Origin: Alphaproteobacteria bacterium
GTDB lineage: Bacteria; Pseudomonadota; Alphaproteobacteria; Rhodospirillales; Rhodospirillaceae
DNA: 32,884 nucleotides
Reading direction: 5' to 3'
Assembly (NCBI GenBank): GCA_012103295.1
Contig: WLXB01000026.1
Location: forward strand, 1 to 32,884
Shown here: positions 8,420 to 32,884 of the stretch, piece by piece
Position numbering within the stretch: position 1 is the first letter of the stretch
Layout: every line of letters starts with the position of its first letter
The notes under the pieces: model-generated
Told to the model about the DNA's origin: nothing
The model's database searches: none
Seen by the model: the letters and a program-made list of their open reading frames with translations, nothing else
Program-made: the position numbers and the translations under genes

Positions 8420-9058
8420 ATGAAACTCGTCTTCACGCCTAACCCAGAATATATCCATAAAGTCCTAGTCGTTGCTCACGAGGGTGGAATCGTCGACCAA
8501 TTGGAATTTCAGAGAACCAGGCCTTTTGATGGTGAAACGATCTGGGACTTTCATCCGATGGGTAAAGTTCCGGCTCTCGTCTTAGACAACGGTGATCCGT
8601 TATATGGCGGCCTAGTCATTTGCGAGTATCTGGACTCACTGTCAACGACGGGTAAGCATGTCTATCCAACCGGCGATGCTCGTTGGCCTGCGCTGCGGCA
8701 GATGGTCTTGGGTGATGGCATGTTCGACGCGACGACGCTTCTGCGGGTCGAAGGATGGCGGGATAAGCCCGACTGGAATATGGATTACATGCTTCGCGAG
8801 CGCCGAAAAATGATCGGCTGTCTTGACCGAATGGAACTAGAAACGCCCCAATTCAGGGATGAGGAATTCCATATAGGTCATATATGTATGGCCGGGGGGC
8901 TCAGCTACCTGGATTTACGCAATCCTATCCAAGAGTACGTGATCGTGGACGGAGATGATTCCTTTGATTGGCGTCAAGGTCGGCCAAATCTGTCCGCGTG
9001 GTACGACGAGATCATCAAACGCCCCTCTTTAGAGTGGCGGTTTACGATGGATGAGTAA
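8420..9058 (+). CDS. Glutathione S-transferase-fold protein, divergent active site
   Basis: This 212-residue protein has the GST layout. The thioredoxin-like N-terminal domain runs to about residue 75 (MKLVFTPNPEYIHKVLVVAHE, slightly shortened here: MKLVFTPNPEY) with a cis-proline motif GKVPAL at 49-53. A helical C-terminal domain includes GHICMAGGLSYLDLR and PNLSAWYDEIIKRPSL. The usual D/E-S pair that holds the glutathione gamma-glutamyl group before VICEYL is replaced by Gly-Gly at residues 63-64, and the catalytic Ser/Cys position reads PNPEY. Glutathione binding may therefore be altered. AAGGA lies 13 bases before the ATG. It is transcribed divergently from the MFS-MDR unit and convergently with the SapC-family gene. 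The enzymatic role is not clear. Confidence 0.83.
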   Translation: MKLVFTPNPEYIHKVLVVAHEGGIVDQLEFQRTRPFDGETIWDFHPMGKVPALVLDNGDPLYGGLVICEYLDSLSTTGKHVYPTGDARWPALRQMVLGDGMFDATTLLRVEGWRDKPDWNMDYMLRERRKMIGCLDRMELETPQFRDEEFHIGHICMAGGLSYLDLRNPIQEYVIVDGDDSFDWRQGRPNLSAWYDEIIKRPSLEWRFTMDE

Positions 9059-9099: not shown

Positions 9100-9882
9100 T
9101 TAGGCAGTTTTGCCCTGAGCTTCTGGAAGGCGCCCCATAATCATTTCCCAGTTATTCAGAGACCCGATGTGAAAATACATGGCGGCGAGCCAGCCCTTTT
9201 GACGCCACTCCAGGAAAGTTTTATCGGATACGTCTCGTAGTTTCTGTTCGTTTATGGATGCAAAAGCACCGATGTCTAGTTTCTCGCCGTCGTGCAGGTC
9301 GACCTCAAGTGATCGCTCTTCAACGAGGTCGGAGTCTTTGAGCATCTGAGAAAATTCCGACGTCGCGCCGTAGGCGCCGTGGAACTGCTGACACAAATCC
9401 AATGCGTCGTTCACCACTTGGGTTTCTTTCTCATCGGCGAACAGTGCGCGAGCTTCGGCGCTAGAAGAATTTGAGGCATGGTCGATTCCGAGCTGCAGGC
9501 GCTCATCATCCTGCTTGCCTAATAGAATAAACGGATAGCGGCGTACGTAGGCAGGGATGTAACAAAACCGTTCCCAGTTGCCTTGATCATCAACGAATAC
9601 GTTCTGGTCGTTCCTGAGGCCAAGTGCGACGGTCGGTACAAGCTCTTCGCCAACGAAGACAATCGGGTAGTGACGGGCTGCAAGGACGAACTCTGGCAGT
9701 GTGATAGGTACGGCATTTGTCGAATTAGCAAAGGTGAAATCTTCAGCCTGCCGGATTTTGAAGTCGCCATGGCTCTCGGCAGTGACGGGGCGGGGATCGT
9801 GATAGAAAAGTGGGGGCGGCATGCGCTCCTCGTTATTTTCTTCCACGTCTGCGGCAGGAGAGTCGTCAGTCTTCTCGGTCAA
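9100..9882 (-). CDS. SapC-family protein
   Basis: The protein shows the SapC-family pattern: PPPLFYHDPRPVTAESHGDF, then NSTNAVPITLPEFVLAARHY and PIVFVGEELVPTVALGLRN in the first half, and WERFCYIPAYVRRYPFIL in the middle. The name comes from a Campylobacter S-layer locus, but most members are stand-alone proteobacterial proteins of unknown function. The C-terminal third (LEWRQKGWLAAMYFHIGSLN) is also typical. I prefer the TTG start at 9882 (260 aa) because AGGAAGG lies about 8 bases upstream. An internal ATG at 9822 (240 aa, preceded by GAGGAG at tight spacing) is a serious alternative, and the track's longest frame from 9969 is unlikely. No signal peptide is seen. The neighbour upstream is the divergent halohydrin-dehalogenase-like gene. 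Confidence 0.82.
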   Translation of the reverse strand: MTEKTDDSPAADVEENNEERMPPPLFYHDPRPVTAESHGDFKIRQAEDFTFANSTNAVPITLPEFVLAARHYPIVFVGEELVPTVALGLRNDQNVFVDDQGNWERFCYIPAYVRRYPFILLGKQDDERLQLGIDHASNSSSAEARALFADEKETQVVNDALDLCQQFHGAYGATSEFSQMLKDSDLVEERSLEVDLHDGEKLDIGAFASINEQKLRDVSDKTFLEWRQKGWLAAMYFHIGSLNNWEMIMGRLPEAQGKTA

Positions 9883-10058
9883 TGTCTTTTCCCTTCCTCG
9901 CCTCAGCTGCGATGCCGAGGTCGTTCCAGTATTCTGGCCGCAAAATATAGCCTTCTGCGGCTGGGTCAACGGTAGGCTACCCAGACCTGAGGTGTATCAA
10001 GCCGATGTCCCGTGTATGGTTGACGGAAATGATACAGCAGGGAACAGAACGAGGTGGA

Positions 10059-10793
10059 ATGATGCTTTCTGGGAAAGCCGTTGTCGTAACCAATGTCTGT
10101 CACTTTGTCGGCATCGCCGCTGCCAGGGTGCTGCAAGCCCATGGTGCCTCTGTGCGGTGCCATGATGTCAGTTTTGTGGACGCCGCAGCGCGAGCCTCGT
10201 TTATCGCCGACCATTCAGATCTAACAGTACTAGACGCTGAAACCACGACCGAAGCTGTTGATCAAACTGAGGCTGACCTGGGACGACTAGACATTGCCGT
10301 TATCAACGACTTCTATCCGGCCCTTAGGGCGCCAATGGGAGAGGCGACTGCCGATGACTTTCGGCAAGGCCTAGAGGCGCTGATGGTAGCCCCATTTGAA
10401 ACGGCTTCGGCAGCAGCCAGACATATGAAACTTAAAGGCCATGGGAAGATGATATTTGTCACGTCCGCGGCTCCGTTTCATGGACTACCTAATTACTGCA
10501 TGTACGCGGCTGGCCGAGGAGGGGCGAATGCCTTGGCATTGTCTGTGGCTAAGGAGCTGGCGCGGAATAATATCCAGGTGAATGCGGTCGCGCCGAATTA
10601 TGTTGAAAGTGAAAGCTACTTTCCGAAAGACCTTCTTGCCGACGAAAAGGCGATGACCAAAATGACGAGCAAGGTACCGCTTGGCCGTCTGGGCAAGCCC
10701 GAGGAAGTGGCCGAGATGATCGCGTTTTTGGCGTCTGATAAGTCTGATTTTATTACCGGGCAGATTATTCCGGTCGCTGGAGGTTGGGCCTGA
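10059..10793 (+). CDS. Halohydrin dehalogenase (SDR-related, HheC-type) candidate
   Basis: The 244-residue protein has an SDR fold, but it carries the two sequence hallmarks of halohydrin dehalogenases instead of SDR cofactor and catalytic motifs. In place of TGxxxGxG it has TNVCHFVG (T11, F16, G18: T-x4-F-x-G), which in known enzymes forms part of the halide pocket instead of binding NAD(P). In place of S-Y-K it has S136-x12-Y149-x3-R153. RCHDVSF (33-39), INDFYP (82-87) and APNYVESE near the halide/nucleophile region also recall HheC. Such enzymes convert vicinal halohydrins to epoxides, releasing halide, and can open epoxides with nucleophiles. GAGGTGG precedes the start; the second ATG at 10062 is equally possible. 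The native substrate is unknown. The GST-fold gene nearby fits electrophile metabolism only weakly. Confidence 0.85.
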   Translation: MMLSGKAVVVTNVCHFVGIAAARVLQAHGASVRCHDVSFVDAAARASFIADHSDLTVLDAETTTEAVDQTEADLGRLDIAVINDFYPALRAPMGEATADDFRQGLEALMVAPFETASAAARHMKLKGHGKMIFVTSAAPFHGLPNYCMYAAGRGGANALALSVAKELARNNIQVNAVAPNYVESESYFPKDLLADEKAMTKMTSKVPLGRLGKPEEVAEMIAFLASDKSDFITGQIIPVAGGWA

Positions 10794-10813: not shown

Positions 10814-12382
10814 CTATTTGGATCCAATCTCCTGGGAATCAACCTTGCCTTTTGACGGAAGCGGTTCCCACATGACGGAATAGAGTACTTTTTCTGCGCT
10901 TAATCCCTTGAGTGCGAATTCGCCGCAATATTTGCAGTCGTCCGCAAACCTTGGTACTGCGCGCCAAATTTCATCACTGATCCAAATTTCAGCACTACCC
11001 GCTTCAGCGCATATGCGAGCAGCTGTTTGGACAGTGGTGCCAAAGTAGTCATTTTCTTCAACAACAGCTTCGCCAGAATGCAAGCCAATCCGTATGTCAA
11101 AGGAGAGTTCCGGTTTTTTCCGATTGAACATGTCGATCTCTTGTTGCATCTGAACGCAAGCCTCGATCGCGTTTCGGGGGTTTTGGTAGGTCGCCATAAT
11201 ACCGTCGCCGGTGTGTTTGACTTCTTTGCCAGTGAATTTTTTCAACGCGTCTCTTACAATTTTATTATGGGCCCGAATGACTTTCTGCATGGTCCGGTCA
11301 CCGAGTTCTTCGGTCAACGCCGTTGAGTCGACGATATCGGTAAACATAAAAGTCTGAACAGTTGGTAGCTCGATAGAGCTATCGGGATTGCACCATTTGT
11401 CGAGCAATTCGTTTAGACCTGGGTTATCGCCAGCATTTTCTTCAAGGTGATTTAACATCGCAGTATCACCGGCATCGATCATGTCTCGATACTGCTTGCG
11501 TTCACCGTACTCATTGACGTTATCCGCGAAAGCTTGAGCCATTTCCTTGTTGGCTCCGGTCAACTCCATGAGGCGCGCGAGAATAGATTGTCCCTCTTTG
11601 GCTGACAGTGAGAAATTTCTGCTGAGACGGGAGCATGCTCCAGCAAAATACAAATTGAGACCGAATTTCGTAAAACTATCGACCGCTTTTTCCCGCGTCT
11701 GAAGCGCTGTCGTCACCTCCGCGATAATAACCTTGAGGTGGACGAGAACCTTTGCCATCGCTTGATCGGCCAAAGCCTCGTCATCGACAGGCTCGTTTTT
11801 TGCTGCAGGTCCACCCATGTCTGAAGGGCCAGCGCCCGCGCCAGGGCCCTGTCCTTGATCAGGCGGTTGTCCTGGGCCTTGACCTTGGCTCTCCTCCTCC
11901 GGTGTAGAAGGGGCACCTTCGGGCGATTTATCAAACCCTTCTTGTTCATCCAAAGTTATTGGGGCTGCGGGCTCCATCATTGAGGCCGCATCGTCGAATA
12001 CCTTGTCGTATTTGGCTTGGATTGGTTGAAGAACACCGCCGAATTTCTCTTCAGCGGCCGGTTCTTCAAAGTCGAACATGGCACTAGACGGAACGTATTT
12101 TTTTATTCTGGTCAGCAACGTGGCCAAGAATAGAATGATAAACCCGAGCATCACGATCAGAGTCTGGAGTTCGGGGTTGACGTTTGCACCCATGGCAATG
12201 GCGATGCGAAAGAGCATGACGCTAGCGAATGTTCCAAACACCGCCATGCCAAGCGCTTGAATAATGATCAGAGTGAGGCCTGGCTTACCTTTACCCAACC
12301 CACCGGCAGCTTGACGCGTTTCGCGTCTTGCTCTGCGACGACCGTCATCTTTCTGCTCACGAATAGATTTCGTCTTTGCCAC
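10814..12382 (-). CDS. Membrane-anchored class III adenylate/guanylate cyclase
   Basis: The 522-residue protein has a basic N-terminus, two membrane spans (LIIIQALGMAVFGTFASVM and LQTLIVMLGFIILFLATLL), a Pro/Gln/Gly-rich low-complexity linker, a helical middle region and a C-terminal class III cyclase domain. FTDIVDST provides the two metal-binding Asp (about residues 348 and 352). VKHTGDGIMATY carries the substrate-site Lys and the GDG loop. In the later VQTAARI motif a Gln stands where many cyclases have the transition-state Asn. It probably makes cAMP, but the nucleotide choice is not certain. I choose the GTG at 12382; the GTG at 12400 lacks a ribosome site. It is convergent with the halohydrin-dehalogenase gene. 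Confidence 0.87.
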   Translation of the reverse strand: MAKTKSIREQKDDGRRRARRETRQAAGGLGKGKPGLTLIIIQALGMAVFGTFASVMLFRIAIAMGANVNPELQTLIVMLGFIILFLATLLTRIKKYVPSSAMFDFEEPAAEEKFGGVLQPIQAKYDKVFDDAASMMEPAAPITLDEQEGFDKSPEGAPSTPEEESQGQGPGQPPDQGQGPGAGAGPSDMGGPAAKNEPVDDEALADQAMAKVLVHLKVIIAEVTTALQTREKAVDSFTKFGLNLYFAGACSRLSRNFSLSAKEGQSILARLMELTGANKEMAQAFADNVNEYGERKQYRDMIDAGDTAMLNHLEENAGDNPGLNELLDKWCNPDSSIELPTVQTFMFTDIVDSTALTEELGDRTMQKVIRAHNKIVRDALKKFTGKEVKHTGDGIMATYQNPRNAIEACVQMQQEIDMFNRKKPELSFDIRIGLHSGEAVVEENDYFGTTVQTAARICAEAGSAEIWISDEIWRAVPRFADDCKYCGEFALKGLSAEKVLYSVMWEPLPSKGKVDSQEIGSK

Positions 12383-12586
12383 ACGTCCCCCGAAACGCAC
12401 CTAGAATGGCAAAACGGCTGCTATCTTGCAGCGATCCGTCCATCTACATCTTCGTCCGATTATTCGGATCTAGAGATGCTTTTCCCATCGACTCTATCTT
12501 TAATAATAGCGGGAAATTACAGGGGGAACACGCTTGTATTTGCACAACGAACACAAAAACGGTTTCGTCTCAAAACCTATAGCTAG

Positions 12587-16841: not shown

Positions 16842-18620
16842 ATGACCGTTGACCAAATATCTGCATTCGCGATTCTCGCGGGCGTTCTTGTCTTTTTTAT
16901 TGGCGGTTGGCTGCGGTACGACTTTGTCGCTTTCGGGGCATTATTTGCTGGCGTTGTCGCTGGGATCGTGCCTTCTGATGGTGCATTTATAGGATTTGGT
17001 AATCCCGCCGTCGTAACAGTAGCTTTAGTGCTGATGATCAGTGAGGGATTGCGGCAATCAGGTGTGGTTGACCTCATTGCGGAATACGCAATTCCGGATA
17101 CGCGCAGTCCAACTCTTCTTATCGCTGTACTTGCTGGCCTTGCCGCCGCGCTGTCTGGTCTCATGAACAACGTTGGCGCCTTAGCGTTACTTATGCCAGT
17201 CGCTTTGCAAGCAGCCCGGCGGTCAGAGATGTCGCCAGCTCTCCTTCTGATGCCTTTGTCGTTCGGATCAATTTTGGGAGGCATGACCACCTTAATCGGT
17301 ACGCCGCCAAATATTCTTGTGTCGAATTTCCGTGCCGACCGGACGGGCGAGGCTTTCGGCATGTTTGACTATTCGTGGGTCGGTGTCCCTGTCGCTATGG
17401 CCGGTGTCGCGTTTATTGCGCTGATCGGATGGCGCCTGATTCCTGGCGGCCGGACGTCGCCATCGGGTGACGCGGAGTTCGATATCCAGCCTTACATGAC
17501 GGAAATTCGTGTCACGGAAGCGTCGTCGCTCGCTGGGGAATTTATGCTCGAAGTGATGAATCAATTAGCCGACAAGGACGTTACCGTCGCGGGGCTTATT
17601 CGGGGCGAACAATTGATTCCCTATCCAGGTATGACGGAACGGGTTAGCGATCAAGACATGCTTGTAGTGACCGGTGATGCAGAAGCGCTGGAAAAAGTGA
17701 TCGCAGATTTCAAACTTGAACTCGTCGGTGATGTGGAAATTGATCAAGGGGCAATCAAGTCTGACAGCGTTAGTCTTATCGAGGCCGTCGTGACGCCGGG
17801 CGCGAGGATTGCTGGGATGACACTGAAGGAAATAGGTCTTCGGTCGCGGTACCACCTCAACCTGCTGGCCGTGTCACGGCAAGGACAGCGTAAGACGATG
17901 CGGATGAATCAACATCGCTTTCGAGCCGGTGACGTACTCTTGTTGCAAGGAGAAAAAGAGCAGCTCAGTGATATGTTAGGGCGTTTAGGGTGTTTGCCTT
18001 TGGCCAAGCGCTCTCTTGGCGTGGGTCGCCATCGCCGTGCTCTTTTTGCGACGACGGTATTCGCGGCGGCCATCGCCGCGGCAGCGTTTAAAGTCGTGCC
18101 GATTACAATTGCGTTTGGTGTTGCAATCGCGGTGATGATTTTGGGCCGCATTGTTTCTCCCCGCCGTGCATACGCCAGTATCGAGTGGCCTATTTTAATT
18201 TTGTTGGGCTGCATGATTCCAGTCGGCGAGGCGCTGGACCGAACCGGTGCAGCTGGGCTGATTGCCCAGGGTATTGTCGCTGTCACGGATCAGTTTCCGG
18301 TCGTCGTCGCGCTTATTGTGGTGATGGTGGTCACGATGACGCTGTCAGACATCATGAACAACGCGGCCACTGCGGTGGTGATGGCACCAATTTCTGTGCA
18401 AATCGCCGAACGACTGAACTCAAATCCCGATACCTTCTTAATGGCGGTAGCTATCGGCGCGTCCTGCGCTTTTCTTACGCCTATCGGTCATCAGAATAAT
18501 ACGCTCGTTATGGGGCCGGGCGGTTACCGGTTCGGCGACTATTGGCGCATGGGCTTGCCTCTTGAAATTCTTGTCGTCGCAGTGTCTGTACCCGTCTTAC
18601 TTTACGCTTGGCCGCTGTGA
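16842..18620 (+). CDS. SLC13-type permease with two RCK_C (TrkA-C) domains
   Basis: This 592-residue integral membrane protein has two hydrophobic halves. The N-terminal half contains MNNVGALALLMPVALQAARR and FGSILGGMTTLIGTPPNILV (about residues 107-160), the SLC13/ArsB-type reentrant-loop signature. The C-terminal half has SDIMNNAATAVVMAPISVQI and LTPIGHQNNTLVMGPGGYRF. Between them (about residues 215-390) lie two soluble regulatory RCK_C-like domains, e.g. EGDVLLL-type RAGDVLLLQGEKEQL. Such permeases carry di/tricarboxylates, sulfate or other anions; the substrate here is unknown. Its stop overlaps the bioM start (TGATG), which ties it to biotin uptake. The ATG at 16842 has no strong ribosome-binding site. 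I find no convincing BioR-like operator upstream. Confidence 0.9.
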   Translation: MTVDQISAFAILAGVLVFFIGGWLRYDFVAFGALFAGVVAGIVPSDGAFIGFGNPAVVTVALVLMISEGLRQSGVVDLIAEYAIPDTRSPTLLIAVLAGLAAALSGLMNNVGALALLMPVALQAARRSEMSPALLLMPLSFGSILGGMTTLIGTPPNILVSNFRADRTGEAFGMFDYSWVGVPVAMAGVAFIALIGWRLIPGGRTSPSGDAEFDIQPYMTEIRVTEASSLAGEFMLEVMNQLADKDVTVAGLIRGEQLIPYPGMTERVSDQDMLVVTGDAEALEKVIADFKLELVGDVEIDQGAIKSDSVSLIEAVVTPGARIAGMTLKEIGLRSRYHLNLLAVSRQGQRKTMRMNQHRFRAGDVLLLQGEKEQLSDMLGRLGCLPLAKRSLGVGRHRRALFATTVFAAAIAAAAFKVVPITIAFGVAIAVMILGRIVSPRRAYASIEWPILILLGCMIPVGEALDRTGAAGLIAQGIVAVTDQFPVVVALIVVMVVTMTLSDIMNNAATAVVMAPISVQIAERLNSNPDTFLMAVAIGASCAFLTPIGHQNNTLVMGPGGYRFGDYWRMGLPLEILVVAVSVPVLLYAWPL

Positions 18621-19294
18621 TGATCGAGCTTGAACAGGTGTCTGTCCGGTTTCACGATCGGACAATACTCGACAACATCTCAGTTTCACTTACCGAGCAT
18701 CGTATCGGCGTTGTCGGAGACAATGGCTCGGGCAAAAGCACTTTTGCGCGCTTGCTCAATGGCCTCCTTTTGCCTGACCTGGGTACGGTAGAAGTCAATA
18801 ATTTGGACACCCGAGACGATGGCAAAGACGTCCGGTCCCAGGTTGGGTTTCTCTTTCAAAACCCAGACAATCAAATCGTTATGCCAACGGTCGCCGAAGA
18901 TTTAGCGTTGGGCCTGAAACCGCATAAACTTACTGGGGCTGAGCAATCACACCGCGTTAGTGTGACGCTGGACCGTTTCTCCCTGACTCATCTGGCCGAT
19001 CGCTCGGCCCATCTTTTGTCCGGCGGCGAAAAGCAACTTGTCGCGCTGGCCGGGGTGATGGTGACGCAGCCACAGATCCTTGTTTGTGATGAACCGACGA
19101 CGCTCCTTGATCGCCGCAATGCGGCTCATGTCATGAGATTGATCGGCGAACTGCCGTGCCAAGTGATTGTAATTACCCATCACGTCGAGCACTTGAATGA
19201 TTTTGATCGCGTCCTGGTTATCGCCGACGGTCGGATTTCCGACGATGGTCCACCTGGAGAGACCATCCCACGCTACTTGGAGACTTTGGCGTGA
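18620..19294 (+). CDS. bioM: Biotin ECF transporter ATPase BioM
   Basis: This 224-residue ABC ATPase energises the biotin ECF transporter. Walker A is GDNGSGKST (33-41), the Q-loop region reads FLFQNPDNQIVMPTVAEDLA as in ECF A-components, the signature is LSGGEKQLVALAG, Walker B is ILVCDEPTTLLD, and the H-loop is VITHHVEHL. The start at 18620 overlaps the permease stop by one base (TGATG); the frame is open further upstream to 18608, but MIELEQVSVRF is the natural family opening. It is followed by bioN (GTGA overlap) and bioY, so the identification as BioM and not another EcfA rests mainly on operon context. Confidence 0.93.
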   Translation: MIELEQVSVRFHDRTILDNISVSLTEHRIGVVGDNGSGKSTFARLLNGLLLPDLGTVEVNNLDTRDDGKDVRSQVGFLFQNPDNQIVMPTVAEDLALGLKPHKLTGAEQSHRVSVTLDRFSLTHLADRSAHLLSGGEKQLVALAGVMVTQPQILVCDEPTTLLDRRNAAHVMRLIGELPCQVIVITHHVEHLNDFDRVLVIADGRISDDGPPGETIPRYLETLA

Positions 19295-19905
19295 TCGTTG
19301 GTCTGTATGTCCCTGGTGACACTGCGCTACATAAGTTGAGCGCGGCGGTAAAACTCATGGCAATGTTTGGTGTCGGCGCAGTTCTTGTTCTCGTTGACAC
19401 TGTCGTGCCTCTCGCCATTTTAGTCATTGGTATTGGATTCATTTTTACAGTTGTCGCGGGATTGGGGCGTAACCGGCTGTGGGCGGCGACGCGACCGCTT
19501 CTGATTTGGCTCGCGATCATTGCTATTACTCAAGTTTGGGTCGCGGACAAAGAAGCGGCGTTCGAGGTTATTCTTAGGCTAATCGCTTTGGTCTGGACCG
19601 CAGCATTGGTGACCTACACCACGCGGTTAACAGATATGAGTGACGTTATTGCTCGGCTGTGTGGGACTCTTCGTCCGCTGGGTGTTTCGCCAGATCGCGT
19701 CGCGTTCCTCGTAGCCCTGACCATTCGCCTCATTCCAGCGGTTTTTGACACGGTACGCGAGGTGCGCGATGCGCAGCGTTCGCGTGGTCTCGAGCGTGCG
19801 TATCTCGCAGCTTTCGTTCCGGTTCTAACGCGGGTTTTGCGTCAGGCCGATGTCCTTTCAGAGGCTCTTATTGCGCGGGGTTTCGATCGATGGGATACAC
19901 AATGA
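19291..19905 (+). CDS. bioN: Biotin ECF transporter transmembrane T-component BioN
   Basis: This 204-residue membrane protein has about five hydrophobic segments in the N-terminal two thirds (KLMAMFGVGAVLVLVDTVVP, PLLIWLAIIAITQVWV, and others). The two coupling motifs of ECF T-components are present near the C-terminus: DAQRSRG (about residues 154-160) and ALIARGF (about residues 193-199). These insert into the ATPase and carry conformational change to the S-component. The start is GTG at 19291, overlapping the bioM stop in GTGA, and the stop overlaps the bioY start in ATGA, so all three subunits are translationally coupled. The sequence before the GTG contains TTGGAGACTTTG, with GGAG at workable spacing. 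Confidence 0.92.
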   Translation: MIVGLYVPGDTALHKLSAAVKLMAMFGVGAVLVLVDTVVPLAILVIGIGFIFTVVAGLGRNRLWAATRPLLIWLAIIAITQVWVADKEAAFEVILRLIALVWTAALVTYTTRLTDMSDVIARLCGTLRPLGVSPDRVAFLVALTIRLIPAVFDTVREVRDAQRSRGLERAYLAAFVPVLTRVLRQADVLSEALIARGFDRWDTQ

Positions 19906-20438
19906 CGGCACGGGACACCGTTTTGGTTGCTCTCTTTGCCGCATTGACTGCGGCTCTGGGTCTTCTTCCACCGATACCAGTTCCGTTGGTCCCCGTGCCG
20001 GTTACCGCTCAAACACTCGGGGTCATGCTGGCCGGATGTCTGATTGGTCCGCGTCGTGCTGGATTGGCGATGCTTCTGCTTCTCATGTTGATTGCCGTTG
20101 GCCTTCCGCTTCTTTCCGGCGGCCGAGGTGGCCTAGCCGTTTTCGTCGGACCCAGCGCGGGTTATCTAGCCGGTTGGGCCGTTGGGGCTTTCGTCATCGG
20201 CCTCGTAGTCGCACGTTTTAACTCAACATCCGTCTCGTTGTTTATCGCGAACTGTGTTGGCGGCATTGCCGTCGTCTACGTTTTCGGTATTCCGGTTATG
20301 GCAGCGGTACTTGATCTTCCGCTCTTAACGGCTGCGCTTGGGTCTGCCGCCTTTCTACCGGGTGACCTGATCAAAGCGGGTTTGGCGGCTGCGATTGCCG
20401 TCGCGGTTCGACGGGCTTACCCGATGGCGGGGCAATGA
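19902..20438 (+). CDS. bioY: Biotin transporter substrate-binding S-component BioY
   Basis: This 178-residue hydrophobic protein has six likely membrane segments. It opens TARDTVLVALFAALTAALGL, and PLVPVPVTAQTLGVMLAGCL (about residues 27-46) is the BioY signature around the biotin site. GGRGGLAVFVGPSAGYLAGW (about 69-88) and AFLPGDLIKAGLAAAIAVAV at the end are equally typical. BioY captures biotin in the membrane with high affinity and here works with BioM and BioN. I choose the ATG at 19902 because it forms an ATGA overlap with the bioN stop; an earlier ATG at 19890 is possible. An acyl-CoA-ligase-type gene follows after 7 bases. Confidence 0.95.
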   Translation: MTARDTVLVALFAALTAALGLLPPIPVPLVPVPVTAQTLGVMLAGCLIGPRRAGLAMLLLLMLIAVGLPLLSGGRGGLAVFVGPSAGYLAGWAVGAFVIGLVVARFNSTSVSLFIANCVGGIAVVYVFGIPVMAAVLDLPLLTAALGSAAFLPGDLIKAGLAAAIAVAVRRAYPMAGQ

Positions 20439-25698: not shown

Positions 25699-26670
25699 AT
25701 GACCATCAATGAAAAACCCACGGACCTGATCCGTAGCGAAAATGCGTCTTCCGAGGCGTCCACACAACTCGTACTGGTAGAGAATGGCAGCGTCGTCATC
25801 CCGGATGCTCCGGCTCTTCTCACCGGCGACTTTTCGAAGCTTGGAGATGATCTGCTAATCATCAGTCCAAGCGGCGAACGATTTTTGGTCAAAGACTTCT
25901 TCACAACCGAGCCTCTCCCGTACTTAACAGATGGTGAGGGTATCGTTGTATCTGGGCAAGTGATCGCCCGCGTTGCGCAAAGACCGGATCCCACTGAGTA
26001 TGCCCAGGAAGGGCAGGCCGATGGCACCGGTGCGATCGGTATCGTCGAATCCATTGACGGCGAAGTCACGGTTGAACGCGCGGATGGGACCATCGTCATT
26101 CTGTCCGAAGGCGACGCCGTATACATGGGCGACCTTATTATAACGGCCGAAGGTGCGACGGTCGGCTTGAAATTTTTAGATGAGACGACCTTTGCCCTCG
26201 GTGAAGACGGCGAACTCATTCTTGATGAACTGATCTACGATCCCGCTAGCGATACGGGGTCCGCCACGTTTACGTTACTCGCAGGCGCGGCCTCCGTGAT
26301 CAGTGGCTCCATCGCCAAAACCGGCGCTGACGCCATGAAACTGGATACGCCGGTGGCCACCATCGGGATTCGTGGTACCAAAGTCATCGCCACTTATGAT
26401 CCGGCAACTGGTCAGATTTCCATCGTCAACCGACCGGAACTTGTGGCGGGTGGGCAGCAGCAGACTGGTGAAATCACCCTGACCCTGCCCAATGGCACAG
26501 TGATCGGAACCGTAAACAACACCAATGGCGGGTGGCAGTTCTCGGCCGGTGAGACACCGACGGCAACAACTTTCAGCGAAGCCGATGTTCAGGCCATCGG
26601 TGGCGCAGTTGATACCCTCGTACAGCAGATCACTACCTGCCGCGCCTGGCGGCGACCAGAACGGTGGTGA
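25699..26670 (+). CDS. FecR-domain N-terminal module of a giant adhesin (interrupted by frameshift)
   Basis: This 323-codon frame begins MTINEKPTDLIRSENASSEA and has no Sec signal. It contains LLIISPSGERFLVKDFFTTE, then a FecR-type domain (about residues 112-230) with GIVESIDGEVTVERADG, LSEGDAVYMGDLIITAEGAT, and VATIGIRGTKVIATYDP. This module is common at the N-terminus of type-I-secreted giant adhesins and is distinct from sigma-regulator FecR proteins. Residues beyond about 310 turn into an unlike Trp/Arg-rich end (TTCRAWRRPERW) before a TGA. In the other frame, AAPGGDQNGGDQ starts at the same place, so the gene seems to continue after a one-base shift. There is no convincing ribosome-binding site before the ATG. 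I treat this as the 5' part of one long gene. Confidence 0.85.
   Translation: MTINEKPTDLIRSENASSEASTQLVLVENGSVVIPDAPALLTGDFSKLGDDLLIISPSGERFLVKDFFTTEPLPYLTDGEGIVVSGQVIARVAQRPDPTEYAQEGQADGTGAIGIVESIDGEVTVERADGTIVILSEGDAVYMGDLIITAEGATVGLKFLDETTFALGEDGELILDELIYDPASDTGSATFTLLAGAASVISGSIAKTGADAMKLDTPVATIGIRGTKVIATYDPATGQISIVNRPELVAGGQQQTGEITLTLPNGTVIGTVNNTNGGWQFSAGETPTATTFSEADVQAIGGAVDTLVQQITTCRAWRRPERW
26625..26670 (+). other. Apparent +1 frameshift joining the FecR module to the adhesin frame
   Basis: Between about 26625 and 26645 the coding signal moves from the first frame (ending at TGA 26668-26670) to the second. Skipping one base, for example the T at 26638, gives ITTAAPGGDQ and restores a continuous frame. 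No homopolymer or classical slippery site is present, so mutation or an assembly error is as likely as recoding. Confidence 0.7.
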
Positions 26671-29600
26671 CCAACAAGGCGGTGATCAAACCAATACAGG
26701 CACGGCCGACGAAACCGTAACAACGGACGAGACGACCACAACCACCACTGACGAAGCCACCGGTGAGACAACCACGACCACGACCACGACCACGACGACA
26801 ACGGTGGGCACCGGAGATGCCGCCACAACTACAACTACGACCACCGCCACCACGGCGACGACCCAAGGGACCCAGCAAACAGTCCAAACGGTCACAACGG
26901 TAACGCCAGCGACGACCACCACGACAACTACCACCACCACCGACACCACGAACGATGTTGTTCCGCCAGCGCCGTCCAACATCAGTGTTGCATTGCTGTC
27001 ATCGGTCGTCAGCGATGATCCCACCAGCTCATTTGGTAACGCGGTGTTTCAGATCAGTCGGAGTAGTACCGATCTGACAACCACAGTAACGGTGAACTTT
27101 ACCACCGCGAGCAGCACGGCAGTCGCCGGGCAGGATTATACCGCGACGGCGGGGTCGGTGACGTTTGCGCCGGGCGAAACCACCAAGACTGTTTCCGTTC
27201 CCATCATTGCGGATACGGCGACGACGTTTGGCGAAGTGGCGGAAACCTTCTTCCTGCAAATCTCGTCGAATGCCCCCGCCACTGAAGTGATTATTAATAA
27301 CGCGGCGGCCGGTGCCACCATCGGCGAAGATGTTCTTCCGTCAATCTCATTGTCCGTGGACCAAACAACCGTCAACGATATGGGTGAGACGGTTATCACC
27401 TACACGGTGACGCGGTCAGGCTCATTATTGGGGAGCAACACGTTTAACCTCCAACTCGGAGGCGACGCGATTCCGGGAGTAGATTACAATATATCATCTG
27501 AGAGCGGCACATTTGCGCCCGGTGATACTCAAGTCACCGGCACGATAACAATCCTTCAAGATGCTAGTTTGTCGGTTCCAGAGCTCGCTGAAACAATTGA
27601 GTTGAGCCTTATCCTCGACGCGAATGCTAACTCTGCTGGTGGCGCCGATTTAGCCATAGTCACGATTGAGGCTGATCCCCCCGGGCCGACTATCTCCGTC
27701 ACGGCCGACGTGACGTCAGTGGATGAAGGCAGTGCCGTCGTTTTGACTTTCACTCGAGGCGGCGATACCTCGGTCGCCGCAGGTGGCTTATACACAATAT
27801 CGGGCGCTGACATCACGGCCGCAGATTTTACCGACGGCACATTGAGCGGTTCTGTTTCGTTTGCCGCCGGTGAGGTAACACAGACCGTAACCATCGGCAT
27901 CGCTAATGATGGCATTCTAGAAGCGGCCGAGACCTTCACGATCGATTTAATAGGTGAGACGGGGACTAACCTCGGGACGCCCAGCAGCGCAACAGTCACC
28001 ATTAATGAGTCTGTTACTCTCCCCGAACTTTCCATAAGCAGCACAACGATTACTGATTCCACCGGCGGGGCGGCTAGCTTTACAGTTTCTCTGACAGAAG
28101 TCTCCGCCACAGATGTTACGGTCAGCTTCACAACCGCTGATGGGACTGCTTTAGCAGGCAGCGACTACACGGCGACAAGTGGCACCCTGACCATCCCAGC
28201 CGGTCAGCTGAGCGGTACGATCAGCGTTCCTATCATTGGGGATGGCGCGGCGGCTGCACCGGAAGGAGAGGAAACGTTTTCTGTCGTTCTGTCGGGGCCG
28301 GTTGGTGCATTTCTAGGCACGTCGACGACTGGCACGGGTACGATCAGCGCCGACGCGGTTGTTGAACCAACGGCGAACCAAAACCCAGTTGCCACGGGCG
28401 TCACCTTCGGCAACCACTACATGCAGTTTGATGGTGTCGACGATCACATTTTGAGCGACAACGATGTAACGATTACCTCGCATTCGGTTGAAGCGTGGTT
28501 CCGTTCGGGCGAGGGCTCCGGCTCGGGTATTCATCCAATTGTTGCGGTCGGCAATGCTAGCGGGTTGGGCAGGGCATTTCTGAACAACGGTGTATTGACC
28601 ATTAACGTCATAGATTCGTCGGGTAATGGTCTGCAGTTGGTGTCTTCCGTCACGGTTAATGACGATGATTGGCATCACGTTGCCTACACCTTCGACGCAT
28701 CGACGGACACCTTGAAATTGTATGTCGACGGCGTCGAAGATACCGGCGCTACGCCCAGTATCGCAGGCAGTGGCGATCCATCTTTCTCGACCACCGGTCC
28801 TTTTGTGGTCGGCTCCGACGCCACCGATTTTTTCCGTGGCGGAATTGATGAGGCGCGGCTTTGGGACACGGTGCTCGATGCATCGACTATTTCATCCGGG
28901 TTCACAGGCACGCCCAGTGCAACTGCAACAAATCTGCTCATCGCTTACGACTTTGAGAATTTTGACGGCACCAACGCGCTTAATCTTGTGTCTGGCGGAA
29001 CCGCACTCAATGGAACAGGGTTTGGCGGTGCGAATACCATCCACTCAGCCAGTGCGCTGGGTTTGGTTGGCGGGAATTACGTCGATACCGGTGTCAATGA
29101 ACTCCCGACCAGCTTCACCGTCTCTGCCTGGTTCTTCATCTCCGATAGTGCAACCGGTGATCAAATCATTCTGGCCAAGCATCCAAGTGGTTCGGCCCCC
29201 GCAAATGGCGACTTCGCTCTCATCTACAATGCAGATTCAGACACCTTGTCTTTCGAAATGGGCAACGGCAGTAGTGTCGATGTAGCCTCGCATACAGGAT
29301 TAACATCCAATAATTGGATTCATGTCACGGCGACCTACGACAGCTCTGGCGGAGCCATGGAGTTATTCGTCAACGGCGCTTCGGTGGGTACCGCGACGTT
29401 GACAGGGAACGCGCGGCAGATCAGTGCCGATAACATTCTGATCGGTCGTGTGACCGATGACACAGGGACCGCCAGTTTTGATGGTGCCGTTCGCGACGTG
29501 GCGATTTTCGGCAACGTTCAGGGCGCCGGTGCCATCGCAACTCTAGCGGATCACGGCGCTACAATCACCGACGCTAACCTCGTGGCCTACTACCCCTTCA

Positions 29601-32600
29601 CCGATGGCGCTGGATCAACGGTAACGGATGCCACGGGCAGGGACGATGGCACCATCGTCGGCGCTATCGAATGGCTATTTGATTCTCCGCCGGTCGGCAA
29701 CGGCAATTCAATTTCTACCCTCGAAGACACACCCTATGAATTTTTTGTCTCAGGCTTTGATCCCGACGGCACCGTCAATAACATCACCGTCACCGCGGGC
29801 AATGGAGCCAACGGTACCACCGCTGTCGGCGCGGACGGTTTCGTTTACACGCCTAACGCCAATTTCAATGGCAATGATACGGTCACCGTTACGCTGACGG
29901 ATTCTGACGGCGGTACGACGACGCAGACCGTAAACATTACCGTTGGCGCGGTGGCGGATGCGCCCAAACTATCGGGCCCCGGAACGCTGGCCTCGATCGT
30001 TCAGGATGACACCAACCCGGCTGGGGATACGGTTTCTAATCTCTTTTCGTCACTCTATTCCGATGCGGAGAACGACACCTTTGTCGGCGTTGCCGTTGTC
30101 GCCAACACGGCTAATCCGGCAACCGAAGGAAAGTGGCAGTACAGCACTGATAGTGGAAGCAACTGGACTGATATTAGCCAGTCTTCGAATTTTGATTCTG
30201 CCTTCCTTTTGAGTGTCAGCACCGAGATTCGCTTTTTACCCGTATCCGGCTATAGCGGTTCACCACCGCCGCTACAGGTGTTAGCGGTCGATTCTAACTA
30301 TGGTGGATCGTTCTCGACAGGTGGCACCGAGCCCACGCCTATCATCGGTGACGCCACCTACCATGGCGGCACGTCCCACTTCGGCGAAGACGACGTTAGT
30401 CTAAACACCACCGTCACCGGCGCAGCAAACCAGCCGCCGGTGCCCTTTGCTGGGAACTCAATTAGTTTTGATGGCGCGGGCGACTACGTCGACATTGGAT
30501 CGAGTTCAGGTTTCAAGGGTGGCGCCAGCGGAACCTCTTTCACCATTTCGGCGTGGATTAAGCCGACCACTGTCAGTGGGACCCAAACCATCATTGCCCA
30601 CGGAGCTGGGAGTTCTGTAGATGGTGTCTCGTTCAGCTTGAGTGGCAGCGATCTTGAATTAGGTGTTCTCGGTGGCAGTACCGTTTCAACAAGTGGAGTC
30701 GGAATCGCAGCGGGTGTCTGGACTCATGTCGCAGTTACGGTCTCCGGCGCAACGGCAGCGTTCTATGTCAACGGTACGTTGGTCGGGAGTTCTACCATTA
30801 CTGTGTTTGGCGCAGACAATACCGATGACTCAGCTTGGATTGGTGCAACGACTTTAGATGGCACAACCCCAGTCGGTGAGTTTACCGGGCTCATTGATGA
30901 GGTCGTCTGGTGGGACGAGGCGAAGAGTGCCGGCGAAATCGCGACAGTCTTTGGTGGTCAACTTTCAGCCGGGACCAGTGACGTTAGAGGCAAATGGGGC
31001 TTTGATGACGGCGGCGGTTTGGTGGCCGTCGATTTCTTCGACACTTCTCAGAACGGCACTCTTAATGGTGACGCCGGATTCTCTAACGACTCTGCACCAG
31101 TTCAACCGAACAGCCCGTTCGAGCTTTACGGCTCCGAAGATCAACAAATGACCATCCAGCTGGGTGGCAATGATCCAGAGAGTGACTCCTTAACAATCAT
31201 CGTCACGACGGTTCCAACAACCGGCACGCTTTATCAGACGGTGGATGGGGCTACACCGACCACGCCCATCAGTAATGGCGAAACGGTATCCAACGCCAAC
31301 GGTTGGGTCATCTATGTCCCGGTTGCCAATGACAACAATGTCGATGTTGATATAATTTTGTTTACAGTTGATGACGGCACCAACTGTCCGATTGCCCAAG
31401 ACGCACATATCAGCCTGCAGCCCGTCGATGACGATGCGGTGATTAGCATTACCAACACGCCGCTCGGATACAACGATGCCGACGGTATGGTTATACTTGA
31501 TGCCGCAGCCACCCTAACGGATATCGATGATTTCGAACTGGATACCCTGAATCAGGGCGGCACGTTGACCATCACGATCACGGCGAATAACACCACCGAT
31601 GACCGCCTAACCATTAAGAACGTTGGTACCAGCGCCGGTCAGATCGGTGTTTCTGGTTCCAATGTCTCTTATGCTGGCACACTCATTGGAACCTTTACGG
31701 GCGGTACGGGTACAGCCGCGCTGGTGATTACGCTCAATGCTGACGCATCCTTAGCGGCGGTCCAAGAACTGGCTCAGAACATTGAATTCGAAAATGTCAC
31801 GACCGGCGAAACAACCACCAAAACCATACAGTTCACGCTCGAAGAAAGTGACGGCGATAGCAGCGTTACCACGGACACCATTTCCGTAAACATGAACCCG
31901 GTCGGTGCGGTTACCTTTGACGGTGGCCCGAGTGCGGAATCTGATTGGTTCACAGCGGCTAACTGGAATCCCGATACGATTCCAGGCAGTGGCGCCGATA
32001 CCGTCATTGATGGCGCCTCGTTCAACGTTGATTACAATACCGCTGGCAGCTCGACCATCAACTCGTTGACGCTGGCGAACTCATCGACCCTCGATTTGGA
32101 TCAAGGCACTCTTGTTGTTAACGGTGCTGTCACGACGGCAGCGGGTAATATGATCACCGTTGACGAAACTACAACCTTGACCGTCGGTGGGGCGTTCGCC
32201 AATGGCGGCACCCTTCGGGTTGGTGGCATTTCGACGACAGGAACGGTGAACGGAGCTGGCATCCTCGACAATACCGGCATCGTACAGGCGTTTCATGGGT
32301 CCATAGACATTGGGACATTTACCAATATGTCCGGTGGTGACATTACTGTCGCCAACACCACCGCCAGTGCTTTCGTTGTCAGTAGTACAAACTTCAACAA
32401 CCAATCCGGCGCAACCATCAACATCATTGGCGGCGCGGTTGACGGGAACCTTCAGGTCTCCAGTACAACGCTAATCAACGACGGCATGATCATTCTGACA
32501 GATTACGGAGGCGCGTTTGATTCACGCCTGACAAATAGCTCCGGTACCATCACCAATAACAACACCATTCAAACAATCGTCAGCAACGGCGGTGGCCGGT

Positions 32601-32884
32601 TCCTCGAAGCACCGATCACCAATAGTTCTGGCGGGCTGATCGACCTTGATACGACGACCAGTTTCACAGCAGCGGTGACCCATAACACAGGCGCGAGTTT
32701 CGAAGTCGCGGCTTCAACCGATGCCAACTTCACGGCCACGACCCTCAATGCCGACGGTGGCACGTTCACGTTTGGGGCCGGGGCCAATCTCTTCTTTACG
32801 GGTGGCGGTACATTAGATGTCGGTTCGGCGACAACGCTAGGATCAAACGGCACATTGAATCTCGGTGACTTCAGCAGTGCAATC
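26639..32884 (+). CDS. Giant Calx-beta/LamG repeat adhesin, continuation (partial, open at right edge)
   Basis: I followed this frame codon by codon from about 26639 to the end and found no stop in roughly 2,080 codons. Order: Gly/Gln/Asp linker, Thr-rich tract (about 26700-26950), four Calx-beta-like repeats (to about 28350), LamG-like domains at about 28415-28960 and 29040-29600 (DDWHHVAYTFDAS, LYVDGVEDTG, GGIDEARLWD), a cadherin-like/tandem-95 segment (LEDTPYEFFVSGFDPDG) at about 29700-29950, a third LamG at about 30460-30960 (ISFDGAGDYVDIGSS), cadherin- and VCBS-like segments to about 31900, and Gly/Asn/Thr beta-helix-like repeats. Only one Cys codon is seen (31385). Type I secretion to the surface is inferred. 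The first ATG in frame (26585) lacks a ribosome site; an independent start is unlikely. Confidence 0.85.
26771..26794 (+). repeat. Four perfect ACCACG hexamer repeats in the Thr-rich linker
   Basis: The 24 bases are four copies of ACCACG, encoding eight Thr residues, inside a longer tract of ACC/ACG/ACA codons. Because the unit is six bases, copy-number change would lengthen or shorten the linker in frame instead of switching the gene off. Confidence 0.75.
26972..28352 (+). repeat. Array of four Calx-beta-like protein repeats
   Basis: Four divergent units of about 110 residues begin near 26980 (ISVALLSSVV), 27350 (ISLSVDQTTV), 27700 (ISVTADVTSV) and 28030 (LSISSTTITD). Each has the Calx-beta features: an F-T/Y-T-V strand, a DYTATAG or similar turn (GQDYTATAG, GVDYNISSESG, AADFTDGT, GSDYTATSG), a TFAPGE/TIPAGQ-type strand, and an EAAETF-like acidic motif that in known domains coordinates calcium. 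Similar units occur in integrin beta4 and bacterial surface proteins. Confidence 0.8.

What the first reader, a model, noticed from the sequence alone, without database searches (positions are those of the whole stretch)
10059..10793. An SDR-like gene that carries both halohydrin dehalogenase signatures
Seen in sequence: the nucleotide loop of SDR enzymes is replaced by T11-x4-F16-x-G18 (TNVCHFVG), and the catalytic Lys is replaced, giving S136-x12-Y149-x3-R153. Established: these two patterns together define halohydrin dehalogenases and separate them from dehydrogenases. Local stretches (TNVxHF, CHDxSF, PNY) also match the HheC pattern as I remember it. Few families of this enzyme are known, and automatic annotation would likely call this a short-chain dehydrogenase. 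Substrate and subtype (A to G) are open.
Basis: partly seen in the sequence, partly recalled or inferred. Interest (0 to 1): 0.78.

Follow-up and report, generated by a model that had tools for sequence, protein, structure and literature searches.

The report
Halohydrin dehalogenase gene hidden among SDRs
A bacterial gene that automatic annotation would probably file as an ordinary dehydrogenase is, by sequence, family tree and predicted fold, a halohydrin dehalogenase, an enzyme that turns halogenated alcohols into epoxides without a cofactor; it is a new member of a known family, and its natural substrate is unknown.

Summary
Observation confirmed, interpretation supported. The ORF 10059-10793 (+, 244 aa) carries both published halohydrin dehalogenase (HHDH) motifs; 0 of 54 other adh_short_C2 matches in the genome carries either. 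The ten best PDB sequence matches are dehalogenases, led by 6a41; the predicted fold (pLDDT 84.8) also finds 6a41 first, TM 0.91, 45% identity. In a careful tree it lies with HheA2, HheB, HheC and HheD2, split from 9 hand-picked SDRs with 100/99 support.

It belongs with 6a41 to a broad, mostly alphaproteobacterial set. Subtypes B, C and D are not met; A in its wide published sense, E, F and G stay open for want of sequences. The gene stands alone, is present in 7 of 7 searched genomes of its genus, is under purifying selection, and sits in local synteny with a glutathione-transferase-type gene. No EHN-type epoxide hydrolase was found in the genome. Activity, substrate and natural role are untested.

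Verdict: new member of a known kind. A by-product may be stranger: relatives that keep the halide-pocket motif but have proline in place of the catalytic tyrosine.

The parts
10059..10793 (+). Halohydrin dehalogenase gene, 244 codons plus stop (start may be 10062)
10089..10112 (+). Motif 1, T11-x4-F16-x-G18 (TNVCHFVG), nucleophile-pocket loop in place of the SDR glycine-rich NAD loop
   Evidence: invariant in the 14 rows of alignment A2, window included; in 66 clade rows T 64, F/Y 62, G 66; motif definition in PMC4989007 and PMC11976700
10464..10517 (+). Motif 2, S136-x12-Y149-x3-R153, catalytic triad
   Evidence: invariant in the 14 rows of A2; S, Y, R in 66 of 66 clade rows
10593..10601 (+). 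P179-N180-Y181 where SDRs usually have P-G (second wall of the nucleophile pocket by analogy with HheC P175 to L178)
   Evidence: N180 in 66 of 66 clade rows; PG in 16 of 18 aligned own-genome SDRs
9100..9969 (-). SapC-domain protein, divergent neighbour, conserved in local synteny
8420..9058 (+). Glutathione S-transferase-type protein, conserved in local synteny; possible epoxide handler (inferred)
10814..12400 (-). Adenylate/guanylate cyclase-domain protein, convergent downstream neighbour (not found by tblastn beside L027 and L030)

Best explanation
The gene encodes a cofactor-free halohydrin dehalogenase of the SDR superfamily. Tyr149, its pKa lowered by Arg153, removes the proton from the hydroxyl of a vicinal haloalcohol held by Ser136. 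The oxygen closes on the neighbouring carbon to form an epoxide, and the halide leaves into a pocket lined by the T11-F16-G18 loop and the P179-N180-Y181 loop, where NAD(P) would sit in a dehydrogenase. The reverse reaction, epoxide opening by small anions, should also occur. Shown here: motifs, family membership by tree, predicted fold, conservation, lone gene in conserved local synteny. Inferred from published HHDH work: the chemistry. Inferred only: that the natural substrate is a naturally occurring haloalcohol, with the neighbouring glutathione transferase a possible route for the epoxide. The confidence given is for HHDH chemistry in the test tube, not for the natural role.
For: Both motifs. 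0 of 54 other adh_short_C2 matches of the genome carry either. The ten best PDB matches are all dehalogenases (6a41 215.7 bits, HheC and variants 140-147, HheA 119-124), before the first FabG at 113.1. Foldseek ranks 1-12 are all dehalogenases, first 6a41 TM 0.91, 45% identity (model pLDDT 84.8, pTM 0.87). Tree split from SDRs 100/99. S, Y, R and G18 in 66 of 66 clade rows. Present in own plus 6 of 6 other searched genomes of the genus; pN/pS 0.09-0.23. Mechanism from PMC4989007 section 4.
Against: No activity data. HheD2 (7b73) scores below several FabGs and other SDRs by sequence (92.4 bits) and is only Foldseek rank 49, and HheB and HheG are not in the best 60 or the best 50; so HHDHs are not simply ranked before SDRs. 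The model is least sure (pLDDT under 50) at residues 140-142, between the catalytic Ser and Tyr, and coordinates were not at hand to measure the pocket. No EHN-type epoxide hydrolase in the genome. The tree's outgroup was 9 or 18 of 54 SDRs, picked by hand from this one genome, and no HheG, HheE or HheF sequence was in it. A loose N-x-x-x-P-[G/N] regex over all 54 SDRs gave 18 G, 2 N and 34 no match, so the PN feature is not as clean on unaligned sequences.
Confidence: 0.85

Rival explanations
1. It has the HHDH active site and test-tube activity, but its natural reaction is different: for example opening of a natural epoxide by an anion, or elimination of another leaving group, with dehalogenation only a side activity. 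(This overlaps with the best explanation, which is about the chemistry.)
For: Present in 7 of 7 searched genomes of the genus, and a match at E <= 1e-50 in 39 of 385 sampled genomes of the class, wider than one expects for xenobiotic haloalcohols. No neighbour family is shared by more than 14 of the 80 loci, and the one shared by 14 looks spurious. No EHN epoxide hydrolase in the genome. PMC4989007 says that other physiological functions cannot be excluded (passage).
Against: Nothing here names another substrate; the catalytic and halide-pocket columns are among the most conserved.
Confidence: 0.35
2. It is an NAD(P)-dependent short-chain dehydrogenase whose motifs merely look like those of HHDHs.
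For: Pfam knows it only as an SDR and the NCBIfam models shown are SDR models; some FabG and other SDR structures score above HheD2.
Against: The glycine-rich loop and the catalytic Lys are both gone; 0 of 54 SDR matches of the genome share either HHDH motif; tree split 100/99.
Confidence: 0.03
3. It is a degenerate, inactive member of the HHDH clade.
For: Only by analogy: a group next to HheA/C has lost the catalytic Tyr.
Against: The full triad is intact, and purifying selection is seen against seven relatives.
Confidence: 0.04

Closest known systems
PDB 6a41, titled 'Dehalogenation enzyme' (released 2019)
   Same: 45% identical to the window protein; 39-55% to the 66 clade rows; 40-55% to 25 of 29 class loci and 69-98% to the other four; same motifs and length; best sequence and fold match.
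   Different: A full-text search for 6A41 with dehalogenase gave 0 papers, so its proven activity is not known to me.
HheC (1pwx) and HheA2 (1zmo)
   Same: Both motifs, fold, PN(Y/F) loop.
   Different: 34% and 33% identity; with each other 33.5%. In the careful tree they form their own branch, 97/87. The HheA-type gene on the Microbacterium J1-1 plasmid adjoins an epoxide hydrolase gene; this gene does not. The HheC C-terminal extension with Trp249 (PMC4989007 section 4) is absent here, the protein ending at GGWA.
HheD2 (7b73) and HheB (4zd6)
   Same: Both motifs and fold class.
   Different: 30% and 28% identity; a separate supported branch, 100/97, with 8xxb and the gammaproteobacterial relatives L112 and L115.
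FabG and other cofactor-type SDRs
   Same: Rossmann fold; Pfam adh_short_C2; 14-32% identity for 18 SDRs of the own genome, 31% for FabG 4nbu.
   Different: TGxxxGxG and YxxxK replaced; outside the HHDH branch.

Membership tests
Halohydrin dehalogenases | Motif 1, T-x4-F/Y-x-G | tested here: met
   T11, F16, G18; definition from PMC4989007 section 5 and PMC11976700 passages; 0 of 54 control SDRs
Halohydrin dehalogenases | Motif 2, S-x12-Y-x3-R | tested here: met
   S136, Y149, R153; 0 of 54 control SDRs
Halohydrin dehalogenases | Groups with characterised HHDHs and apart from SDRs in a tree | tested here: met
   100/99, 9 SDRs; SH-aLRT 100, 18 SDRs; references HheA2, HheB, HheC, HheD2; no E, F or G reference
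Halohydrin dehalogenases | Rossmann-fold monomer of HHDH type | tested here: met
   Foldseek ranks 1-12 are dehalogenases, TM (query) 0.87-0.91
Halohydrin dehalogenases | Anion pocket instead of NAD(P) cleft in three dimensions | not tested
   model coordinates were not among the files for scripts; the sequence of both pocket loops agrees
Halohydrin dehalogenases | Homotetramer | not tested
   monomer predicted only
Halohydrin dehalogenases | Cofactor-free halide release and epoxide opening | not testable with these tools
   needs an assay
HHDH subtypes B, C, D | Groups with HheB, HheC or HheD2 | tested here: not met
   28, 34 and 30% identity; HheB and HheD2 in a separate supported branch, HheC on a branch with HheA2
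HHDH subtype A | Groups with HheA enzymes | tested here: inconclusive
   Not on the branch of HheA2 and HheC, 33% to HheA2. But PMC4989007 section 5 describes A/C as a diverse branch with A members only 27-42% identical to verified HHDHs, and puts HheA3 and HheA5 in Parvibaculum lavamentivorans and Tistrella mobilis, both alphaproteobacteria; those sequences were not at hand and could lie in this clade
HHDH subtypes E, F | Groups with published HheE or HheF | not tested
   no sequence of either found in the tools; the 2014 and 2016 source papers are not held
HHDH subtype G | Groups with HheG | tested here: inconclusive
   HheG structures are not among the best 60 PDB matches; no HheG in the tree
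Cofactor-dependent SDRs | Glycine-rich loop and Tyr-x3-Lys | tested here: not met

The most novel reading that the evidence does not exclude
This lone, genus-conserved gene belongs to a broad alphaproteobacterial HHDH set whose job is not xenobiotic breakdown but routine handling of naturally formed haloalcohols or epoxides. Here the epoxide would be taken up by a neighbouring glutathione transferase rather than by an epoxide hydrolase.
Probability: 0.2. Interest if true: 0.55.

Novelty: new member of a known kind. Interest (0 to 1): 0.33.

Why it matters
HHDHs are called industrially relevant biocatalysts in the review (PMC4989007 abstract), and their natural role is an open question there: as of 2016 only two known genes sat in an operon with an epoxide hydrolase (passage). 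A study of marine Pseudomonas also suggests a role in marine environments (PMC6922532 section 8). A gene found in 7 of 7 searched genomes of one genus, in the same local synteny in the six relatives compared (five of the genus and one of the next) and without such a partner, is a good place to test the question. The 66 clade rows, median pairwise identity 52%, also offer enzymes to test, among them a natural Trp variant of motif 1.

Tried and rejected
Tried without success: naming 6a41 from papers (0 papers); finding HheE or HheF text (0 occurrences in the 7 papers listed; the 2014 and 2016 source papers not held); the pdb_via library (not on the machine); 16S rRNA in the own genome (none found); plasmid relatives (all 146 records under 60% identity, best listed 35%; 25 of 146 listed, one of them, H16, annotated haloalcohol dehalogenase and used as HheA-type comparator).

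Rejected or unsupported: a partner gene shared across the clade (first 45 families printed, flanks up to 6 kb, Tyr-less loci included). After HHDH itself the largest neighbour family (14 of 80 loci, representative frame 1769 aa) looks like long spurious frames of GC-rich DNA; the next is a zinc-type dehydrogenase in 9 of 80. Of eight neighbours scanned, purK, COQ9, flavoprotein, GGDEF, SIR2 and MobA-like genes follow small related sets of loci; an acyl-CoA dehydrogenase lies near 6 of 80 loci of mixed lineages, and I did not test it for excess. A tryptophan-halogenase source of substrate in the genome: none found. My earlier reading 'not A type' was withdrawn when I checked this report. The tally line (0 of 29) was an indexing slip in my script; one search gives the right counts. 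My notebook entry wrongly puts L095 in the Tyr-less group; L095 has the Tyr.

Full report
Observation. The published definition of the two HHDH motifs is T-x4-F/Y-x-G and S-x12-Y-x3-R, against T-G/A-x3-G/A-x-G and S-x10-14-Y-x3-K in SDRs (PMC4989007, section 5 read; PMC11976700, passages read). As a control I took all 54 other places of the genome that match Pfam adh_short_C2 at E <= 0.001 (DNA and loci L001-L008): 0 of 54 have motif 1, 0 of 54 motif 2, 44 of 54 have the SDR triad pattern.

Sequence and fold relatives. Of the PDB sequence matches, ranks 1-10 are all dehalogenases: 6a41 215.7 bits, HheC and its variants 140-147, HheA 119-124; the first reductase, a FabG, follows at 113.1, and HheD2 (7b73) comes only at 92.4. 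Of the best 25 NCBIfam models shown (of 206) none reaches its cut-off; generic SDR models match 14 of 14 members of alignment A2 (cut-offs shown for the window protein only). The AlphaFold2 model (14 sequences, pLDDT 84.8, pTM 0.87, weakest at 140-142 and the last three residues) finds dehalogenases at Foldseek ranks 1-12, first 6a41 with TM 0.91 and 45% identity; HheD2 is rank 49 with 28%. So D-type enzymes are not its nearest kin, although they are HHDHs.

Tree. With HheA2, HheB, HheC, HheD2, 6a41, 8xxb, two gammaproteobacterial relatives, the clade, Tyr-less relatives and SDRs of the own genome, HHDHs and SDRs are separated with SH-aLRT 100 in a quick tree of 77 rows and 100/99 in a careful tree of 39 rows. 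In the latter the window protein lies with L025, L027 and L030 (100/100) and then with L031 and L034 (97/97). HheB, HheD2, 8xxb and L112 and L115 form one branch (100/97); HheA2 and HheC another (97/87). The alphaproteobacterial set with 6a41 is not a supported single branch (2 changes; the same set without 6a41, 3), and the HheA/C branch lies among its parts. Limits: no HheE, HheF or HheG sequence; SDRs hand-picked from one genome.

Subtype. B, C and D are excluded by identity and tree. A is not settled. PMC4989007 section 5 calls A/C a diverse branch, with some A members only 27-42% identical to verified HHDHs, and names HheA3 and HheA5 from Parvibaculum lavamentivorans and Tistrella mobilis, both alphaproteobacteria. 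The window protein is 33% identical to HheA2 and 34% to HheC; the 66 clade rows range over 30-39% and 30-44%. The review's conclusion gives identities between subtypes as below 30% (passage), which the window protein exceeds for both A and C. E, F and G could not be compared.

Distribution. In 61 relatives searched (own included) 15 have a match at E <= 1e-30, among them 7 of 7 of the genus; one of the 15 (L023) lacks the Tyr. A scan of named genomes gave 80 loci, the cap (115 relatives confirmed). Of the 68 loci L025-L092, 60 have both strict motifs, 64 have motif 1 if Trp is allowed at the aromatic position, and 67 have motif 2; the misses are L035, L054, L055, L057, L060, L073, L074 (unread letters) and L076 (partial). 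In 385 genomes of the class, 39 (own included) have a match at E <= 1e-50; of 29 loci fetched besides the own one, 29 have motif 2, 25 both strict motifs, 28 with Trp allowed, and L186 misses motif 1. The two samples overlap in part. The closest named record is a Rhodospirillaceae MAG, 88% identical; isolate names point to marine and estuarine sources (inferred from names).

Surroundings. The gene stands alone: SapC-domain protein divergent upstream, cyclase-domain protein convergent downstream. L025-L029 (same genus) and L030 (another genus of the family) keep DUF1838, zinc-type alcohol dehydrogenase, MFS exporter, GST-type protein, SapC, HHDH and a solute-binding protein in order; L031 (61% identity) keeps DUF1838, ADH, GST and SapC; the cyclase gene was not found by tblastn beside L027 and L030. 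Across the wider set no neighbour stood out. No EHN-type epoxide hydrolase and no tryptophan halogenase was found in the genome, which is 96% complete. By contrast a plasmid-borne HheA-type gene in Microbacterium J1-1 adjoins an epoxide hydrolase gene and lies near a glycerol kinase gene, the catabolic setting that the literature describes.

Mechanism. From PMC4989007 section 4: Ser places the substrate hydroxyl, Tyr takes its proton, Arg lowers the Tyr pKa, the halide leaves into a pocket where SDRs hold the nicotinamide. The three catalytic residues and the motif-1 loop have counterparts here. N180 of the second pocket loop is kept in 66 of 66 clade rows, where 16 of 18 aligned SDRs have Pro-Gly. 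A loose regex over all 54 SDRs was less clear: 18 G, 2 N, 34 no match. The chemistry is therefore inferred with good confidence; the substrate is not known. The pairing with a glutathione transferase is suggestive only, since the seven loci that show it (L025-L031) share one piece of synteny.

Verdict. A sound, under-annotated new member of a known enzyme family; the natural role is the open question. The Tyr-less group next to HheA/C (noticed in passing) is the more unusual observation, and it lies outside the window.

Noticed in passing
L093, L094, L096-L104 and L023 (for example L099:6001-6726, Desulfosarcina widdelii): HHDH relatives next to HheA/HheC in the tree (five of them, 99/95; joint branch with HheA/C 95/80) keep the motif-1 Thr, aromatic and Gly, the Ser and Arg columns and the PNY loop, but have Pro where the catalytic Tyr should be (11 of 11 rows; 12 of 12 with L023), and an invariant extra Arg two residues after the Ser in 12 of 12. 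Best PDB match of L099 is HheA, 161.6 bits. The two-motif mining rule would miss them; function unknown.
   Followed up: partly
L054, L055, L057, L060 and L166-L168: Natural Trp at the central aromatic position of motif 1 (T[FS]A[ST]HWAG); the published motif names F or Y only. L060 and L168 look like the same contig.
   Followed up: partly
L034 (CANJPQ010000016.1) and L060 (CALQFM020000004.1): Labels probably wrong. L034 is labelled Candidatus Marinimicrobia, but a contig of the same length (114451) with the gene lies in G029, in the window's own family. L060 is labelled Kuenenia, but the gene at the same coordinates of contig 4 (4576-5307) lies in G718, in the window's class.
   Followed up: no
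By eye, a DsbA-like frame lies near four of the five and an acyl-CoA synthetase or CoA-transferase frame near the same four.
   Followed up: no
window 26525-32884 (+): Open frame of at least 2120 codons running off the window, with laminin-G-like, Calx-beta and bacterial Ig/cadherin-like domains: a probable giant surface protein. Weak matches of its lectin-like parts to other lectin-fold models in the same list are read as cross-matches.
   Followed up: no
window 18608-20438 (+): ABC ATPase, CbiQ-type and BioY genes in a row: probably a biotin-type ECF transporter.
   Followed up: no
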